Assembly: GCF_014524565.1 (NCBI RefSeq)
Contig: NZ_CP060139.1
Coordinates: 744,001-808,000, forward strand
Reading direction: 5' to 3'
Length of the DNA: 64,000 nucleotides
DNA from: Croceimicrobium hydrocarbonivorans
GTDB taxonomy: Bacteria > Bacteroidota > Bacteroidia > Flavobacteriales > Schleiferiaceae
Each line of letters starts with the position of its first letter. The first letter of the stretch is position 1. The translations under genes and the position numbers were made by a program. Below, in pieces: positions 1,571-8,544 of the stretch. The notes beneath the pieces are model-generated. The model did not search any database, was not told the origin of the DNA, and saw nothing but the letters and a program-made list of their open reading frames with translations.

Positions 1571-1804
1571 TTAAACCCGGTTAAAAAACAATATGCGCAG
1601 GGCAGCGGCAGTATGGACTTCAGGTTTCACACATTCCATCCTTAGAGGGCAAATAGCCGGCCTCTCTGCCCCAAATTCAGGACATGCTTCGCCATCGGTA
1701 CATATACCGCACACCGGTGCCAGAATTTTACATTTGTAAAAGCCTCGCACAATCCCATTCGCATATTGGTGATCCTTTTTAAAGCCGATCAAGCTTCTTT
1801 TCAT
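1571..1804 (-). CDS. Small cysteine-rich protein of unknown function
   Basis: A 77-residue protein with six cysteines at 25, 32, 35, 41, 52 and 58, in a C-x6-C-x2-C-x5-C-x10-C-x5-C pattern that could bind zinc or an Fe-S cluster. Prolines follow several of the cysteines (ACPEFG, ICPLRM). There is no signal peptide. It ends 8 nt before the slipin start and begins directly after the tRNA-like stretch, so it is probably co-transcribed with both. A hairpin (ATGGC-GAAG-GCCAT) sits just before its ATG. Codon use resembles that of the neighbours, which supports a real gene. I do not recognise the family. Confidence 0.65.
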   Translation of the reverse strand: MKRSLIGFKKDHQYANGIVRGFYKCKILAPVCGICTDGEACPEFGAERPAICPLRMECVKPEVHTAAALRILFFNRV

Positions 1805-1866
1805 GGTATGGCCTTCGCCATGGCTCCGTGAAAGGGAGGATTGATTTTCCTACAACCAGTAATTAT

Positions 1867-1930
1867 CCTACATAATAAGGGAATCGAACCCTCGGAAAAA
1901 ACCTGTGCTCTGCCATTGAGCTATTGAACC
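1867..1930 (-). ncRNA. tRNA-like element with canonical D- and T-arms but a collapsed anticodon arm
   Basis: Read on the minus strand, GCTC-AATGGCA-GAGC (1921-1907) is a textbook D-arm with the GG pair in its loop. AGGG-TTCGATT-CCCT (1892-1878) is a textbook T-arm with a TTCRANY loop. Between them are only 13 nt (ACAGGTTTTTTCC), where a normal tRNA needs about 23, so the anticodon arm is reduced to two or three possible pairs around a T6 loop. The acceptor strands (GGTTCAA and ATTATGT side) pair poorly. It cannot decode. It lies 4 nt from a second tRNA-like element and upstream of the Cys-rich and slipin genes. Either a decaying tRNA or a maintained tRNA mimic. Confidence 0.7.
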
Positions 1931-1934
1931 AAAA

Positions 1935-2016
1935 GGTCCAAATGGGAGTCGAACCCATAACCTCAGGAAATTGCGTTCTTTTAAGACGGTATACCGTATC
2001 CGGCACCATGGTGACC
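1935..2016 (-). ncRNA. Leu(UAA)-like class II tRNA mimic with a defective anticodon stem
   Basis: An 82-nt minus-strand sequence. The T-arm ATGGG-TTCGACT-CCCAT (1958-1942) is perfect. The D-region GGT...GGTAT-ACC has the class II layout seen in tRNA-Leu. A TCTTAAAA segment matches the Leu(UAA) anticodon loop, but the flanking 5-bp stem is broken: only CGT/ACG plus CT/AG with a bulge can form. A CCTGAGG segment could be a short variable arm. The acceptor pairs only at its outer four positions (GGTC/GACC). Elbow elements kept with the decoding end lost argues for a tRNA-like role rather than translation. Decay of a true tRNA is the alternative. Confidence 0.7.
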
Positions 2017-2046
2017 TACAGAGACACCCATCTAGATCTCCGGTAG
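2015..2046 (-). ncRNA. Two-part hairpin next to the tRNA-like elements
   Basis: Read on the minus strand, CTAC pairs with GTAG and, inside it, GAGA pairs with TCTC around a 12-nt loop containing GATGGG. The hairpin touches the 5' end of the Leu-like element. It may be a third, more degraded tRNA-like piece (D-arm-like) or a processing signal. No family recognised. Confidence 0.45.
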
Positions 2047-2117
2047 AACAAACCGTATTTTAAATAAGATAAAATGAATTTTCAGGCCTTAGAAGCCTTG
2101 GTCTTCAGCTTGGCTTT

Positions 2118-2594
2118 CTACTTCATTTTGAGTCGTTTAAGACTTAATTCAATCTCATTTTGTTGGGCCTCATTTTCCACATATTGCAAAAGCATTTTAC
2201 AATAATTAATAGCTATTTTTAAATAGCCTCTTAACTCCATTATCTTAAACATATACCAATAAACATATAAAGGTTTAAATAAAGATTTACTGGTAATATA
2301 ATTCAACAAATTTAGAGCTTCAGAATATAATTGAAGCGCAATCAAACTATCCATTAGCGCTGCTGCAGCACAAGCATTTTCAGGATCAATTGCCATCGCC
2401 TGTTCGGCTGCATCCTTAGCCTCTTTTGGCCAATTAAGCATGTGGAGATAGTATTGAGACTTTAAGCAAAGACTGGGTATATGCTCCGGATCATAAGCCA
2501 GGGCATAATTGAGCTGCTCCTCTGTTTCTGCCAGATCAAAAGGATAAGCGTCGTAAGCCTTTAAATAATAAGATGTTACTAATTGAGTTGACAT
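2118..2594 (-). CDS. Small TPR-repeat protein
   Basis: A 158-residue, all-helical protein with no signal peptide, so probably cytoplasmic. Tetratricopeptide-like repeats are visible at about 20-53 (ETEEQLNYALAYDPEHIPSL), 54-88 (AKDAAEQAMAIDPENACAAA) and 89-150 (YSEALNLLNYI, then LKIAINYCKMLLQY). It is the first gene of the minus-strand unit that continues through the tRNA-like sequences to slipin. An 8-bp inverted repeat (AAAATGAA/TTCATTTT) begins at its last codons and folds the spacer before the tRNA-like elements. TPRs mediate protein-protein contacts; the partner is unknown, and the slipin or Cys-rich protein is only a guess. Confidence 0.75.
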   Translation of the reverse strand: MSTQLVTSYYLKAYDAYPFDLAETEEQLNYALAYDPEHIPSLCLKSQYYLHMLNWPKEAKDAAEQAMAIDPENACAAAALMDSLIALQLYSEALNLLNYITSKSLFKPLYVYWYMFKIMELRGYLKIAINYCKMLLQYVENEAQQNEIELSLKRLKMK

Positions 2595-2934: not shown

Positions 2935-5184
2935 ATGAAACCAAACAAAGCCCTCTACCTTTTCCTCTTCTTTTTAAGCTTCCATTTTCTCAAGGCCCAA
3001 AACTCGGCTTGCTTAGCGAATGACACGCTCACCATTGTAGTGATTGGCTCTTCCACCGCTGCAGGAGCAGGAGCCAGCACCCCTGATTCTTCCTGGGTAA
3101 ATCGCTACCGCCGCAGTATGCAGGCCCTAAACCCGGCCAATCAGGTAATCAATCTTGCTCAAGGTGGTTATAATACCTGGCGTTTAATGCCCGATTATTT
3201 CAGCCCACCTTCCGGCCGTCCTAGTCCGGATACCCTGCGTAATATCAGTCATGCCCTGCGCCAAAACCCCGATGCCATTATCATTAACCTACCTTCCAAT
3301 GATGCTGCTATCGGAACTGGGCTCAATGAGCAAATGACTAATTTTATTCATATTGATAGCCTGGCGGCCAGCTATAATGTACCGCTCTGGGTATGCACCA
3401 CCCAACCCCGAAACTTTAGTGCCAGCCAAATTCAAATTCAATTGGATGTCCGCGATTCCATTTTGAGCTATTTCGGCCCCCGAGCCATAGATTTCTGGAC
3501 GGGTTTAGCCAACAGTCAAAATACCATCCTGGCGCAGTATAATTCTGGCGACGGCACCCATGTTAATGATGCCGGCCATCGCCTTCTATGGCAGGAGGTT
3601 TTAACAGAGGCCCTGCCCGATAGCCTGGTTTCCAATGTTTCGGGTCTGGATTTACAAGTATCTCCTCCCCTTTGGACCAATCCTTCGCCCTGTGGTAGCC
3701 CCAACAGCATTATTGAAATCCAATTAGCCAATCTTCGCAGCGATAGCCTACAATCAGCGGCTACGGTAGAACTCATTCGATTAGACCTCAACAGTGGTAT
3801 TCGAGATACTTTGCGCCAAAGCCTCAATCAAATTTCAGGCTGTGCCTATGCTCAGGTGCAATTCAGCCTAAATACCAATCAACAGCAGCACTGGCAATTA
3901 CACAGCCGGATTATATGCAGTCAAGACAGCAATAGCTTTAATAATATTAGCAGCAGTATTGAGGTCCAAAGTGAAGCCGGTCCCCAAATTACCAGCACCG
4001 ATCCCTTTTACTGCGAGGGCGATAGCATGTGGATTAGCCCCAGCCATAGCGGCGATCAATTGACCTGGTTTAGCGATGCCGGATTAAGTCAGCCCATAAA
4101 TCAAGGGGACAGCCTGTATTGGAATCCTACTTTGGGCGACAGCCTGTTTTTACAAAGTTTACAGGGACCTTTTTACTATATCGAATCACTCAGCTCAGCG
4201 CAAAGCTCCAATATCAAATGGAATGGTTGCATGTTTAACCTTATTGCCGGACCGGATACTGTAAGCCTGGATAGTATTCAATTTGTGGCCGGAACTTCTG
4301 GTGATATGCAAGTGAACCTCCGCACCCGATTAGGGTCTTATCAAGGCCATGAAAACACGGCCGCTTCCTGGTCGGCTTCCATCTCAGACAGTATTTATGG
4401 GGCTCTGGAAGACAGTAGCTATGTCTTAAAATTCGGCAGTATAATTTTAAATCCTGGCGACACCCTGGGTTGCTACCTCTATTTGGAAAACAGCAATCAG
4501 AGATTGGCCTACCAAAGTGTGGGTAGCATGCAGCTGTATCAAGGAGCAGGATTAAGTGTGCAAGCGGGCAGTGGCATTCAGCATACCTTCGGAACCATCT
4601 ATCATCCCCGGGCTATCCGAGCCCAATTCTATTATCACTATGGCTTTAAAGCCGATGGGCAATGTCAGAGTACGGTAGATACCATTATTCCGAAACCTAG
4701 TCCAGCCATTTTAGATTTAGGTTTTGATTTCAACCATAGCCCTGGAATTGACCTAATCCTATATCTTCCTCCTGGATTTAGCAATCCCGTTTGGAACGAT
4801 GGCTCCACTGCAGATTCACTATTTATCCCTGCCCATAGATATGAAAACACTCTTAAGCAATTTATTTTAAGCGCTATTGATAGCTTAGGATGCATGCATT
4901 CGGATACTCTAGCGGTGCAATTTTTACCCTGGTTCGGATTAGAAGAAGCTAGCAGCTTAGGCTTCACCCTATACCCCAATCCAAATCAGGGGCAGTTCCA
5001 TATTTCCAATCCTGGTAAAGCAGCTTTTAGCTGGAAGCTGATGAACACTAATGGTAAGCTTTTATCGGAAGGCCAAGGCTTTGAAACAGATATCAGGATT
5101 AAAACATCCCTTGCCAAAGGATTGTACTATTTACGAATTGAACAGGAGGGTCAGGAGCAAATCCTCAAGTTGCTGATTCAGTGA
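2935..5184 (+). CDS. Secreted SGNH/GDSL-type hydrolase with T9SS sorting domain
   Basis: A 749-residue secreted protein. Signal peptide about 1-21 (ending KAQ). The SGNH hydrolase domain covers about 30-230: block I VIGSS with nucleophile Ser40, block II around QGG (76-78), block III PSND with Asn122, block V DGTH with Asp206 and His209. The middle (about 235-670) is made of adhesion-like beta modules. The tail from about 675 (LYPNPNQGQFHIS..KGLYYLRI) is a type A T9SS C-terminal domain, cleaved on export through the outer membrane. Probably an esterase acting on acylated polysaccharide at the cell surface; the substrate cannot be read. The following MFS gene starts inside its stop codon. Confidence 0.85.
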   Translation: MKPNKALYLFLFFLSFHFLKAQNSACLANDTLTIVVIGSSTAAGAGASTPDSSWVNRYRRSMQALNPANQVINLAQGGYNTWRLMPDYFSPPSGRPSPDTLRNISHALRQNPDAIIINLPSNDAAIGTGLNEQMTNFIHIDSLAASYNVPLWVCTTQPRNFSASQIQIQLDVRDSILSYFGPRAIDFWTGLANSQNTILAQYNSGDGTHVNDAGHRLLWQEVLTEALPDSLVSNVSGLDLQVSPPLWTNPSPCGSPNSIIEIQLANLRSDSLQSAATVELIRLDLNSGIRDTLRQSLNQISGCAYAQVQFSLNTNQQQHWQLHSRIICSQDSNSFNNISSSIEVQSEAGPQITSTDPFYCEGDSMWISPSHSGDQLTWFSDAGLSQPINQGDSLYWNPTLGDSLFLQSLQGPFYYIESLSSAQSSNIKWNGCMFNLIAGPDTVSLDSIQFVAGTSGDMQVNLRTRLGSYQGHENTAASWSASISDSIYGALEDSSYVLKFGSIILNPGDTLGCYLYLENSNQRLAYQSVGSMQLYQGAGLSVQAGSGIQHTFGTIYHPRAIRAQFYYHYGFKADGQCQSTVDTIIPKPSPAILDLGFDFNHSPGIDLILYLPPGFSNPVWNDGSTADSLFIPAHRYENTLKQFILSAIDSLGCMHSDTLAVQFLPWFGLEEASSLGFTLYPNPNQGQFHISNPGKAAFSWKLMNTNGKLLSEGQGFETDIRIKTSLAKGLYYLRIEQEGQEQILKLLIQ

Positions 5185-6440
5185 ATCGGCTAAAAACATT
5201 TTCACAGTACTTAGCACTTATCCTGGCAGGTGAGGCCATCTTCTTGCTGCCCTTTATGGCACCTCGGGTTTTTAGAACCACCTTATTAGAGGTGTATCAA
5301 ATCGATAATCTGGAATTAGGTTATTGCTTCTCCCTCTATGGCTTAGTAGCAGTGGTTTCCTATTTCCTTGGAGGGCCTTTGGCGGATTTATTTTCCGCTC
5401 GAAAATTAATGTCCATAGCCTTAGGCCTTACCGCCTTGGGAGGATTTATAATAAGCTGGTGGCCCAATTATACTGCCCTTTTGATAGCCTACACCTTTTG
5501 GGGCTTCTCTACTATCTTACTCTTTTGGGCCGCTTTAATGAAAAGCACCCGCATTTTGGTGGACCCCGAAAATGTGGGCAAAGCCTTTGGTTGGGTTGAA
5601 GGAGGTCGTGGACTAAGCGCTGCCATTTGGTCGAGCCTGGCCGTTGCGCTTTTTGCTTTCTACTTTCAAGATGAATCCAGTCAGGTGATTGAAAGCCGGC
5701 ATATTGCCTATCGCTATGTATTGCAAAGCGCCTCCTTTTACCTGATTCTGGTTGCCATCTATGTTTGGTTTATCCTACCGAAAAGAGAGGTTCAAATGGA
5801 CTTGAATCACTCCATGAAAGGATTAAAAAAATTGGTAGGCCTGAAACGTTTATGGCTGCAAGCCCTGATTCTTTTTTGCGCCTATTGTGGTTATAAAATA
5901 ACCGACGATGTTTCCCTCTTTGGTCATGAAGTTTGGGGACTCTCCGAAGAAGATGCCGTTTTATTAAGCAGCTATACTTTCTACCTGCGCCCCATCACCG
6001 CCATTACCGCTGGCTTTCTGGTGGATCGAATTTCCACCGCAAAAATCCTGAGTTTCAGCTTTGGGATCAGCGCTTTGGGCGCCCTGGCCCTGGCCTGGTT
6101 TCCTGGCCAGGAAATGACTGCTTTTGGACTGATCTTTTTAGGCTCCAGCCTCAGTGGCATTTATGCCTTACGTGGTATTTATTTCTCTCTGATGCGCGAA
6201 AACCAAATAGACCGTCGCCTCAGTGGCACGGCCATTGGAATTCTCTCCGTGCTTGGCTATTTGCCGGATGTTTTCATGAGTCCTTTTATGGGCTGGATTC
6301 TTGAATCGAACTCTGGGCCCATCGGACACCAAAACCTCTTCCTAAGTTTAGGTTTAATTATGATCCTCGGAATCATCCTTTCTCAAGCCTGGAAAAGGGA
6401 ATATCGCAAAGTGGCTAGGACTGAGCCTGCTTCAAGCTAA
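5181..6440 (+). CDS. MFS transporter, 12 predicted membrane helices
   Basis: A 419-residue polytopic membrane protein with alternating hydrophobic segments throughout, consistent with 12 helices. A helix 2-3 loop GGPLADLFSARKLM matches the MFS signature G-x3-D-x2-G/S-R-R/K, and the second half repeats it as GFLVDRISTAKIL. It starts at a GTG that overlaps the preceding stop (GTGA), so it is translationally coupled to the SGNH hydrolase gene. Its 3' end overlaps the convergent tex gene by 26 nt. The substrate is unknown; a sugar or degradation product released by the hydrolase is a context guess only. Confidence 0.8.
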   Translation: MNRLKTFSQYLALILAGEAIFLLPFMAPRVFRTTLLEVYQIDNLELGYCFSLYGLVAVVSYFLGGPLADLFSARKLMSIALGLTALGGFIISWWPNYTALLIAYTFWGFSTILLFWAALMKSTRILVDPENVGKAFGWVEGGRGLSAAIWSSLAVALFAFYFQDESSQVIESRHIAYRYVLQSASFYLILVAIYVWFILPKREVQMDLNHSMKGLKKLVGLKRLWLQALILFCAYCGYKITDDVSLFGHEVWGLSEEDAVLLSSYTFYLRPITAITAGFLVDRISTAKILSFSFGISALGALALAWFPGQEMTAFGLIFLGSSLSGIYALRGIYFSLMRENQIDRRLSGTAIGILSVLGYLPDVFMSPFMGWILESNSGPIGHQNLFLSLGLIMILGIILSQAWKREYRKVARTEPASS

Positions 6441-8544
6441 GCTGAACTCTTTTACGTGGCACATCCACCGAAAGGACTTTAACCTGAACCTGCTCTTGTA
6501 AGCGCACGACCTCATTGGGATCTCGAATAAATCGATCTGCCAACTCGCTAACATGCACCAATCCAACTTGCTTGGCCCCTACATCTACAAAAGCGCCAAA
6601 ATTGGTGATATTGCTAACGATGCCTGGCAATATCATCCCTTCCTGCAAATCGGATATGCTGCGGATGCGCGGATCAAACTGAAAGATCTTGGCTGCCCCT
6701 CTAGGATCCCTTCCTACTTTGGAGAGTTCGCTTTTAATATCCTCCAAGGTTGGGAGACCTACCTCCTCTGTACAATAAGGTTTGAGGTCAAGGTCCTTCA
6801 ATATTTCTTTTTGGCCGATTAAATCGTGAATCGGTTTTTTAAGATCCTTCGCTATTTGCTTCACGATCACATAAGACTCCGGGTGCACGCCAGAATTATC
6901 CAGGGGATTCTCCGCTTCCGGGATTCGTAAAAAGCCCGCTGCCTGTTCATAGGCTTTTGGCCCTAATTTGGGCACTTTTAATAAGGCTGCCCTGGACTTA
7001 AAGGCTCCATGCTCTTCGCGATAAGCCACAATATTTTCAGCTAGTTTGGGGCCCAAGCCCGATACGTATTCCAACAAGTGCTTACTGGCAGTATTGAGGT
7101 TTACCCCAACAGCATTTACTACCTGCTCCACCACCCGATCCAAAGCCGCTTTCAATTGATTTTGATCTACATCGTGTTGGTATTGCCCTACCCCAATGCT
7201 TTTAGGGTCGATTTTCACCAATTCCGCCAGAGGGTCCATCAATCGTCGACCGATACTCACAGCACCTCGAACGGTAACATCGTAATTGGGAAATTCCGCT
7301 CGAGCAATAGATGATGCCGAATAAATCGAGGCTCCTGCTTCATTCACCACAAAGGCTTGCACTGGATATTTAAAGCGCACCTTCTTACTTACAAACTCTT
7401 CGGTTTCCCGACCAGCGGTACCATTGCCAATGGCGATGGCATCAATTTTATAGGCTTCGGCCAGATGAGCAATTTTAGCAGCGGCCTTAGCTGTATCGCG
7501 CTGGGGCGGATGCGGGTAAATGGTGTCATTATGCAGAAGGCTGCCCTGCTCATCAATGCAAACCACCTTACAGCCGGTTCTAAATCCTGGATCGATAGCC
7601 AGAATTCGCTTAGGGCCCAATGGTGGACTCAATAATAACTGTCGCAGGTTTTCCGCAAAAACAGCAATGGCCTCCGTATCCGCTTTCAACTTAGAAGCTT
7701 GGGCAAATTCCGTTTCGATGGAAGGTTTCATCAGGCGTTTATAGCTGTCTTTCAAAGCCAATTCCACTTGTTCGCTGCAAGCATTACGACCTTTTACAAA
7801 TATGCGAGCGAGGCTATCCAATGCTCGCTCTTCTTCGGGAGCAATACTCACCCGTAAAAGCTTTTCATTCTCGGCCCTGCGAATAGCTAAAAGCCGATGA
7901 GCCGGAATACGACGCAAGGCTTCCGAAAAGTCGAAATAGTCGCGGTATTTCTCCGCTTCCGCTTCCTTCCCTTTAATCAGCTTAGCTTGAATTTGGGCCT
8001 CTCTTTCAAAAATGCGACGCAGGGTATTTCGGGCAGAAAGCCTTTCGTTCATCCATTCCGCCATTATATCTCGCGCGCCTGATAAGGCCTCATCAATATC
8101 CTGTACCTCCCCTTTCACAAAACTCAGAGCCAAGGATTCGGGGTCGCGAGCATCCTGCTTCATGATCATTCCCGCCAAGGGCTCCAAGCCTTTTTCCCTG
8201 GCTACTGAAGCCCGGGTTTTACGCTTTTGTTTGTAGGGCAGATATAAATCTTCGAGCTCATTTAAATCCCAGCAAGCTTCAATCTGAGCTTCGAGTTCTG
8301 CACTTAATTTTCCCTGCTCCTTTATGGATTCGAGAATGCTGGCTTTCCGGGCCGCCACCTTTTCGAAATAGGCTTGCTGCTCCTTTATTTCTTGGATTTG
8401 CACCTCATCCAAACTCCCTGTGCGCTCCTTACGGTAACGAGCAATAAATGGGATGGTAGCTCCTTCGGAGAGGAGGGCTAAGGTGTTGGCTACTTGCTTC
8501 TCAGTAAGTCTGAGCTTTTGAACGATGAAAGTATTGTAGTTCAA
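6415..8544 (-). CDS. tex: Tex-family RNA-binding transcription accessory protein
   Basis: A 709-residue protein with the full Tex layout: N-terminal helical Tex domain (about 1-200), YqgF/RNase H-like domain starting near 313 (RILAIDPGFRTGCK), helix-hairpin-helix motifs (about 480-560, LNTASKHLLEYVSGLGPKLA) and an S1 RNA-binding domain at about 640-705 (VSNITNFGAFVDVG..GLVHVSEL). Tex binds nucleic acid and is linked to transcription and stress survival in other bacteria. Length matches the family. The last 26 nt overlap the end of the convergent MFS gene, so the two transcripts are complementary at their 3' ends. Confidence 0.95.
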   Translation of the reverse strand: MNYNTFIVQKLRLTEKQVANTLALLSEGATIPFIARYRKERTGSLDEVQIQEIKEQQAYFEKVAARKASILESIKEQGKLSAELEAQIEACWDLNELEDLYLPYKQKRKTRASVAREKGLEPLAGMIMKQDARDPESLALSFVKGEVQDIDEALSGARDIMAEWMNERLSARNTLRRIFEREAQIQAKLIKGKEAEAEKYRDYFDFSEALRRIPAHRLLAIRRAENEKLLRVSIAPEEERALDSLARIFVKGRNACSEQVELALKDSYKRLMKPSIETEFAQASKLKADTEAIAVFAENLRQLLLSPPLGPKRILAIDPGFRTGCKVVCIDEQGSLLHNDTIYPHPPQRDTAKAAAKIAHLAEAYKIDAIAIGNGTAGRETEEFVSKKVRFKYPVQAFVVNEAGASIYSASSIARAEFPNYDVTVRGAVSIGRRLMDPLAELVKIDPKSIGVGQYQHDVDQNQLKAALDRVVEQVVNAVGVNLNTASKHLLEYVSGLGPKLAENIVAYREEHGAFKSRAALLKVPKLGPKAYEQAAGFLRIPEAENPLDNSGVHPESYVIVKQIAKDLKKPIHDLIGQKEILKDLDLKPYCTEEVGLPTLEDIKSELSKVGRDPRGAAKIFQFDPRIRSISDLQEGMILPGIVSNITNFGAFVDVGAKQVGLVHVSELADRFIRDPNEVVRLQEQVQVKVLSVDVPRKRVQLSLKQAQS

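What the first reader, a model, noticed from the sequence alone, without database searches (positions are those of the whole stretch)
1571..2594. Tandem tRNA mimics embedded in a TPR / Cys-rich / slipin unit
Seen: two adjacent minus-strand elements (1935-2016 and 1867-1930) with textbook T-arms (TTCGACT and TTCGATT loops) and D-loops with GG, but broken or collapsed anticodon arms and weak acceptors. They lie between a TPR gene and a Cys-rich gene followed by slipin, all on one strand and without a terminator between. Elbow features kept while the decoding end is lost suggests selection for a tRNA-shaped RNA, not simple decay. Known: slipins of this kind have been linked to RtcB RNA-repair operons; I also recall reports of odd tRNAs beside band-7 genes, so novelty must be checked. 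Inference: a tRNA-damage sensing or decoy system in which mimic RNA and proteins act together.
Basis: partly seen in the sequence, partly recalled or inferred. Interest (0 to 1): 0.85.

Follow-up and report, generated by a model that had tools for sequence, protein, structure and literature searches.

The report
Permuted tRNA-like RNA beside slipin gene
Next to a bacterial gene for a slipin (SPFH-family) protein lies a conserved non-coding RNA element shaped like a tRNA that has been opened at its anticodon; the same kind of element accompanies the Ro protein in other bacteria, and in some relatives it sits beside RNA-repair genes, which hints at a role in mending damaged tRNA.

Summary
The tRNA-like sequence is real, but it is neither decayed nor two tandem tRNAs. 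All four helices covary across 31 loci; acceptor strands pair across units, not within them, in 35 of 37 cases. The module precedes slipin in 25 of 25 slipin genomes of the order sample (22 in training). Bacterial Y RNA has this architecture: the model, trained on slipin loci only, finds a module within 3 kb of Ro/TROVE in 12 of 12 TROVE genomes. RtcB occurs in 21 of 25 slipin genomes against 26 of 171 others. The 'Cys-rich gene' is probably not a gene. Best reading: RNA partner of an SPFH scaffold in tRNA-damage repair; transcription and binding unproven. From recall, a 2016 paper reported Band-7 genes with a tRNA-like RNA; I could not read it. New variant of a known kind.

The parts
2118..2594 (-). 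TPR protein gene upstream of the RNA, same strand
   Evidence: Pfam TPR_19 E 3e-5, 24.6 bits against a cut-off of 25; homologues in 8 of the other 30 locus records examined, 7 distinct genomes (L036/L003 are one; L004, L037, L038, L039, L040, L042); terminator-like site 2679-2655 just upstream
1987..2028 (-). 5' domain of the RNA: hairpin GGUG-UCUCUGUAGGU-CACC (2028-2010) and a second hairpin UGGUGCCGGAUACGGUAUACCG (2008-1987)
   Evidence: First hairpin found in 27 of 43 loci by a pattern that itself fixes part of the loop and asks for a stem, so loop identity and % paired are partly by construction; stem changes on both sides: 9 cells against 3.9 in shuffles, score 0.368 against 0.110. Second hairpin: alignment within groups only
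1895..1972 (-). circularly permuted tRNA-like module (Y RNA type): anticodon stem 5' strand CCUG (1967-1964), T-arm (1958-1942), capped acceptor hairpin (1941-1924), D-arm (1921-1907), anticodon stem 3' strand CAGG (1905-1902)
   Evidence: Covariation over 31 loci; covariance model 68.7 bits, E 8.7e-19, but this locus is in the training set; Rfam YrlA 38.5 bits; coordinates
1862..1893 (-). reduced second module: T-arm (1893-1877) and capped hairpin (1876-1862); no D-arm or anticodon arm here
   Evidence: by eye a capped hairpin of other sequence also follows the second T-arm in L036 and L004; weak model hit at window 1837-1907, 27.8 bits
1770..1791 (-). 3' domain hairpin UGAUC-GGCUUUAAAAAG-GAUCA, inside the supposed Cys-rich ORF
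   Evidence: Similar hairpins with other stems in many relatives, from a permissive search; group alignment; coordinates
1571..1804 (-). supposed Cys-rich ORF (77 aa), judged not to be a gene
   Evidence: No Pfam/NCBIfam match; L036 has a TTG start, in-frame TGA and a non-triplet indel; among 35 loci searched, tblastn finds it only in the window's own copy and in L003/L012, one sister genome; aligned region lacks it in L004, L037, L038
456..1562 (-). slipin: SPFH/Band-7 protein with two N-terminal beta-repeats
   Evidence: Pfam Band_7 E 4e-28; AF2 model pLDDT 81.3, pTM 0.58; Foldseek stomatin E 8e-15, MVP E 3e-10. Highest 19-residue hydropathy 1.73 here but 1.14 and 1.13 in two homologues, and the model has beta-strands there, so a membrane helix is unlikely, not excluded

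Best explanation
The region encodes a structured non-coding RNA element, on the strand of a TPR gene and slipin, whose core is a circularly permuted tRNA: opened at the anticodon loop and sealed at the acceptor end by a short cap, so it should be unable to be charged or to decode. Inference: it is the RNA partner of an oligomeric slipin (SPFH) scaffold, as Y RNA is of the Ro/TROVE ring. The tRNA-shaped part would present an elbow that binds tRNA-handling enzymes or damaged tRNAs and bring them to slipin, in a response to tRNA cleavage that uses RtcB (encoded elsewhere in this genome) or, in relatives, RNA ligase, PNKP and RlaP. Shown here: the structure and conservation of the element, its linkage to slipin, the same module at TROVE loci, and the association with repair genes. 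Inferred: transcription, binding to slipin, oligomeric state, the damage signal and the scaffold role.
For: Covariation in all four helices: 5 of 5 acceptor pairs and 5 of 5 closing-stem pairs have changes on both sides; score 0.737 against 0.237 shuffled and 0.09-0.16 slid. Without any hand-picking, the first module of 38 loci pairs all four closing-stem bases at fixed tRNA spacing in 25, against 9.2 in shuffles, 0 of 5000 shuffles as good on mean pairing. Cross pairing of acceptors beats own pairing in 35 of 37. 25 of 25 slipin genomes of the order sample have the module just upstream of slipin (22 of them in training). Outside training it is found at slipin loci L045, L046, L052, L063, L069, L074 (37.6-66.0 bits), and within 3 kb of TROVE in 12 of 12 TROVE genomes, with no tRNA gene called at the hit in any of the 12. 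RtcB in 21 of 25 slipin genomes against 26 of 171 others and in 12 of 12 TROVE genomes; among 47 RtcB genomes 1 has slipin and TROVE, 20 slipin only, 11 TROVE only, 15 neither, Fisher p 0.006, phylogeny ignored. Repair genes beside slipin in some relatives and RlaP in E. coli. Homologues of the WYL regulator that is divergent from rtcB here lie at 7 of 31 slipin records and at 2 TROVE loci.
Against: No transcript, binding or phenotype data. Here rtcB lies about 0.5 Mb away; 4 of 25 slipin genomes, two of them in this genus, show no RtcB at E 1e-10. Over the whole 196-genome sample slipin and TROVE are not significantly exclusive (1 of 25 against 11 of 171, p 1.0). The structured stretch runs almost to the slipin start, as a cis leader would. 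The closing stem is absent from later modules of the chains (all four pairs in 1 of 30). The second module is degenerate in this genus. Model R1 has matches in 142 of 196 genomes at E 1e-8, and those I looked at away from slipin and TROVE were ordinary tRNA arrays, so its score alone does not prove kinship with Y RNA. Five of 43 slipin loci gave no module to the finder.
Confidence: 0.5

Rival explanations
1. Cis-acting leader: the tRNA-like RNA is the 5' UTR of the slipin mRNA and senses tRNA damage, tRNA-binding proteins or repair enzymes to switch slipin expression.
For: Where found at slipin loci it lies upstream and on the same strand, 224-830 nt from the start in 41 loci, weak hits included; group alignments show structure almost up to the start codon.
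Against: At TROVE loci L081 and L084 the same module lies 3' of the TROVE gene, so it is not inherently a leader. No switch was looked for beyond the terminator scan.
Confidence: 0.25
2. Decoy or sacrificial substrate: the RNA titrates anticodon nucleases or is cut by them as an alarm.
For: Many relatives have a canonical anticodon stem-loop (5 bp, U33, purine 37) late in the chain, with varied anticodons such as GAA, GTA, TTT, CAA, GTT, TAT. Hughes et al. suggest such competition for YrlA (passage of PMC7790460).
Against: The window's copy has no such loop late in the chain. The same passages say that fragments of YrlA were not detected, so it was not a substrate there.
Confidence: 0.12
3. 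Remnant of an ordinary tandem tRNA array (decayed tRNA genes).
For: Real tRNA arrays lie upstream of slipin in several relatives, and tandem tRNAs can score with the model.
Against: Acceptor strands pair with the neighbouring unit (mean 5.8 of 7) and not within the unit (2.9 of 7); compensatory changes; caps are mostly 3-6 nt, leaving no room for CCA or end processing (inference).
Confidence: 0.03

Closest known systems
Bacterial Y RNA (YrlA, Rfam RF02553) of Ro/Rsr (TROVE) RNPs
   Same: Circularly permuted tRNA-like module of T, acceptor and D arms closed by a stem; linked to rtcB operons. Passages seen in PMC11472068, PMC8394870, PMC7790460.
   Different: Partner gene is an SPFH protein and this genome has no TROVE; additional 5' and 3' conserved stretches; YrlA gathering score not reached. 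Several modules per locus occur at both slipin and TROVE loci.
SPFH/Band-7 module with a 'novel tRNA-like molecule' in RNA-repair systems (Burroughs and Aravind 2016, doi 10.1093/nar/gkw722; abstract recalled, paper not held)
   Same: Band-7 gene with adjacent tRNA-like RNA, in the setting of RtcB, RNA ligases and TROVE (recalled); RlaP is attributed to that paper in passages of PMC7824862 and PMC6514570.
   Different: Whether it describes the permuted architecture, chains, extra domains or the likeness to Y RNA is unknown to me; it could not be read.
Vault particle (major vault protein and vault RNA)
   Same: Among the listed fold matches only MVP spans both the N-terminal repeats and the SPFH part (model 6-327, Z 12.3, rmsd 5.5, 226 aligned; 7-348, Z 10.8, rmsd 8.7, 245 aligned).
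   Different: The repeats alone match MVP weakly (Z 3.2) and SPFH first domains slightly better (Z up to 4.9); no evidence for a shell.

Membership tests
Bacterial Y RNA (YrlA) | Circularly permuted tRNA module: T-arm, capped acceptor, D-arm, closing stem | tested here: met
Bacterial Y RNA (YrlA) | Reaches the Rfam gathering score | tested here: not met
   38.5 bits against 69. TROVE-linked modules in L081, L083, L084, L086 also stay below it (best 44.6), so the threshold misses these Bacteroidota Y RNA candidates too
Bacterial Y RNA (YrlA) | Ro/TROVE protein encoded in the genome | tested here: not met
   No PF05731 match in G000 at E 0.001; Deinobacterium control rings
Bacterial Y RNA (YrlA) | Binds the Ro ring and PNPase | not testable with these tools
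   Needs biochemistry
SPFH/Band-7 RNA-repair module with tRNA-like RNA | SPFH/Band-7 protein gene | tested here: met
   PF01145 E 4e-28
SPFH/Band-7 RNA-repair module with tRNA-like RNA | Adjacent tRNA-like RNA | tested here: met
SPFH/Band-7 RNA-repair module with tRNA-like RNA | RNA ligase or other repair gene in the same locus | tested here: inconclusive
   None among the six ORFs scanned at this locus, RtcB about 0.5 Mb away; present beside slipin in L007, L040, L042, L046, L057 and, as RlaP, in E. coli
tRNA gene or pseudo-tRNA | 5' and 3' acceptor strands of one unit pair with each other | tested here: not met
   Own pairing 3 of 7 against cross pairing 7 of 7 in the window's locus; no tRNA called
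Vault (MVP) architecture | Tandem beta-repeats before an SPFH-like shoulder and cap helix | tested here: inconclusive
   Whole model Z 10.8-12.3, N-terminal part alone Z 3.2

The most novel reading that the evidence does not exclude
Bacteria have two interchangeable RNP platforms for tRNA-damage response, a Ro/TROVE ring and an SPFH (slipin) ring or cage, both using the same permuted-tRNA RNA module. The slipin version has grown in many lineages into a large multi-domain RNA in which permuted modules share acceptor stems in a chain that ends in a canonical anticodon loop: a bacterial analogue of Ro/Y-RNA and vault/vault-RNA particles.
Probability: 0.3. Interest if true: 0.85.

Novelty: new variant of a known kind. 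Interest (0 to 1): 0.6.

Why it matters
It gives slipin-linked tRNA-like RNAs an exact architecture, ties them to Ro/Y RNA through a shared module, and makes a role of SPFH proteins in RNA repair testable. A slipin-RlaP locus is at hand in E. coli: 1650 of 5426 complete genomes match it and 1617 hold at least 80% of it, although its RNA keeps only part of the module. If slipin and Ro are alternative partners of one kind of RNA, the open question of what Y RNAs do can be approached from both sides.

Tried and rejected
Ordinary or decayed tandem tRNAs: rejected by acceptor pairing and covariation. Cys-rich protein as a partner: rejected. Single-sequence folding: uninformative (z -0.93). Slipin in phages: no match at E 1e-10 in 50,697 phage records. 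Vault identity from the N-terminal repeats alone: not supported (Foldseek no match at E 0.001). Model R1 as a stand-alone detector: it also hits ordinary tRNA arrays, so counts were tied to position. Three R1 hits away from slipin and TROVE (L097-L099) were tRNA arrays. E. coli keeps a T-arm with a capped hairpin by eye (L071) and scores weakly (L075, 16.2 bits); L066, L072, L073 and the Bryobacterales L009 and L010 are also weak (14.7-24.7 bits), the last two with an element in ordinary tRNA order by ARAGORN and by eye.

Selection and dropped rows: A3 holds 31 loci, one module each, hand-picked from 38 loci with a finder hit, of 43 examined. The finder already asked for T, acceptor and D pairing, so '% paired' for those helices is biased; the closing stem was no criterion of the finder, but I had seen its pairing when I picked, hence the unpicked test. 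L003 is the same genome as L036/L012; it is counted in the 31 records and left out. One search also left out L071 and L072. 22 of the 25 slipin genomes are in R1's training set. The 27 loci of A6 were chosen by a pattern.

Full report
WHAT IS THERE. On the minus strand, in reading order, lie a terminator-like site (2679-2655), a TPR gene (2594-2118), a structured stretch (from about 2028 to 1770, possibly on to slipin) and slipin (1562-456, Pfam Band_7). ARAGORN finds no tRNA in the window. Rfam at a relaxed threshold (E up to 10, 11 matches) gives one convincing hit there: YrlA, the bacterial Y RNA-like family, at 1983-1892 (38.5 bits, E 6e-6; gathering score 69).

THE CORRECT PARSE. The sequence shows one circularly permuted tRNA. 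Reading 5' to 3': CCUG, five nt, T-arm AUGGG-UUCGACU-CCCAU, acceptor hairpin UUGGACC-UUUU-GGUUCAA, UA, D-arm GCUC-AAUGGCA-GAGC, A, CAGG. The spacings (2 nt between acceptor and D, 1 nt between D and anticodon stem, 5 nt between anticodon stem and T) are those of a tRNA; the chain is open in the anticodon loop and closed at the acceptor end. The second T-arm (1893-1877) is followed by another capped hairpin (1876-1862) but no D-arm.

EVIDENCE THAT IT IS MAINTAINED. Slipin relatives came from genome contigs (8 loci), a sample of the order (25 of 196 genomes at E 1e-40), a sample of the phylum (20 of 395, overlapping) and plasmid records (9 with a match, four fetched). In the first 31 locus records, the window's own and one genome twice included, a GGTTCGA word lies upstream of slipin on its strand in all 31. 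A mechanical finder gives at least one T-acceptor-D module in 38 of 43 loci. On 31 hand-picked modules, 19 pairs in four helices show 158 cells with changes on both sides against 45 in shuffles; the covariation score is 0.737 against 0.237 shuffled and 0.09-0.16 for slid partners. Because the finder asks for T, acceptor and D pairing, the closing anticodon stem is the fairer test: without hand-picking and at fixed tRNA spacing all four pairs form in 25 of 38 first modules against 9.2 in shuffles (mean pairing as high in 0 of 5000 shuffles), while later modules of the chains lack it (1 of 30). Permuted against ordinary tandem tRNA was tested by comparing the 5' acceptor strand of each unit with the preceding and with its own 3' strand: 5.8 of 7 against 2.9 of 7 pairs on average, cross better in 35 of 37, worse in 2 (L052, L074). 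Single-sequence folding says nothing (z -0.93).

A LARGER RNA. A 5' hairpin precedes the module in 27 of 43 loci found with a pattern for its loop; its stem has 9 cells with changes on both sides against 3.9 in shuffles. A 3' hairpin with an A-rich loop and changing stems appears in many loci in a permissive search (indicative only). Group alignments show structure over much of the interval up to slipin (output partly cut). Many relatives carry two or more modules, and many have a canonical anticodon stem-loop late in the chain with different anticodons (GAA, GTA, TTT, CAA, GTT, TAT). The window's copy lacks that end.

THE CYS-RICH ORF IS PROBABLY NOT A GENE. No family match; in L036 (slipin 94.6% identical, as L012/L003) the start is TTG, the frame has a TGA and an indel is not a triplet; among 35 loci tblastn finds it nowhere else; it overlaps the 3' hairpin.

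LINK TO Y RNA AND RO. A covariance model of slipin-linked modules only (R1) was run over the 196 genomes. It hits just upstream of slipin in 25 of 25 slipin genomes (22 in training). It has some match in 142 of 196 genomes at E 1e-8; those I looked at away from slipin and TROVE were ordinary tRNA arrays (L087, L088, L094/L095, L097-L099). But five of its highest hits not at slipin (64.7-69.4 bits, in G080, G110, G031, G103, G096) lie beside a TROVE/Ro60 gene (Pfam confirmed in two), and 12 of 12 TROVE genomes have a hit within 3 kb of the TROVE match, with no tRNA gene called at the hit in any. None was in training. That bacterial Y RNA superposes on tRNA with a circular permutation is published (passages of PMC11472068, citing Wang et al. 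2018; see also PMC8394870). So slipin and TROVE are accompanied by the same type of RNA module.

LINK TO RNA REPAIR. RtcB is found in 21 of 25 slipin genomes against 26 of 171 others, and in 12 of 12 TROVE genomes; among the 47 RtcB genomes 1 has both slipin and TROVE, 20 slipin only, 11 TROVE only, 15 neither (p 0.006), but over all 196 genomes slipin and TROVE are not significantly exclusive (p 1.0). Phylogeny is ignored in these tests. Beside slipin, relatives encode RtcB (L042, L046), RtcB and RlaP (L040), T4-type RNA ligase and PNKP (L007, L057; L007 also RlaP), and E. coli RlaP; RtcB is within reach at 3 of 31 records. The WYL regulator divergent from rtcB in this genome has homologues at 7 of 31 slipin records and at two TROVE loci. 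Ordinary tRNA arrays lie upstream of slipin in several Flavobacteriales. In Anabaena the slipin gene alr0740 and rtcB are both up in a trcR mutant (passage of PMC10272220); whether that slipin is of this type was not tested. In the window's genome rtcB is about 0.5 Mb away and TROVE is absent.

THE PROTEIN. AlphaFold2 gives two N-terminal beta-repeats, an SPFH domain and a long helix (pLDDT 81.3, pTM 0.58). Stomatin matches the SPFH part (Foldseek E 8e-15; aligned model 118-348), major vault protein nearly the whole (E 3e-10; Z 10.8-12.3). The repeats alone (pLDDT 90.6) match SPFH first domains (Z up to 4.9) and MVP (Z 3.2) only weakly. A vault-like particle is a suggestion, not a finding.

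HOW IT MOST LIKELY WORKS. The module resembles a tRNA cut in its anticodon loop, the usual product of anticodon nucleases and substrate of RtcB or of PNKP plus RNA ligase (established knowledge), but its acceptor is sealed. Y RNA is described as holding Rsr by its stem and PNPase by its tRNA-like domain (passage of PMC8394870). By analogy the most economical reading is an RNA scaffold on a slipin oligomer that recruits tRNA-handling enzymes or damaged tRNAs. This is inference; a cis leader and a decoy stay open.

NOVELTY. The abstract of Burroughs and Aravind (2016), recalled and not read here, speaks of TROVE and SPFH/Band-7 modules with Y RNAs and 'a novel tRNA-like molecule'. That the paper exists and is the source for RlaP is seen in passages of PMC7824862 and PMC6514570. 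In ten full-text searches none of the rows listed joins slipin, SPFH or Band-7 with a tRNA-like or Y RNA, as far as titles, abstract starts and term counts show; several lists were capped below the number of matches, the library holds open-licence papers only, and I saw listings, not full texts. I rate it a new variant of a known kind: permuted and chained architecture, extra domains, and a module shared with Y RNA.

Noticed in passing
L081 (1738-1815), L084 (2935-3022): Rfam Flavo-1 RNA (RF01705) lies just beyond the 3' end of the TROVE gene on the opposite strand in both loci.
   Followed up: no
L097, L098, L099; also L043, L051, L053, L054, L056: Arrays of ordinary tRNA genes: 15-16 in L097-L099, taken from TROVE genomes, and 5-14 upstream of slipin in the others; proteins of 161 and 180 aa that look alike by eye lie near the arrays of L043 and L097. 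Perhaps stress-induced spare tRNAs.
   Followed up: partly
L075 (E. coli strain WAT, 4502-7388): Slipin-RlaP locus between yjbD and lysC, in this strain followed by a zeta-toxin family gene; 1617 of 5426 complete E. coli genomes hold at least 80% of the locus.
   Followed up: partly
L009, L010 (Bryobacterales): A tRNA-like element in ordinary, unpermuted order precedes slipin (ARAGORN calls Val and Arg); possibly an ancestral or alternative state.
   Followed up: no
L061 5933-8417: rtcB divergent from a WYL/WCX-domain regulator in the window's genome.
   Followed up: partly
L103, L102, L084, L086, L101: TROVE loci too have two or more module hits each, so multi-module clusters are not special to slipin.
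   Followed up: no
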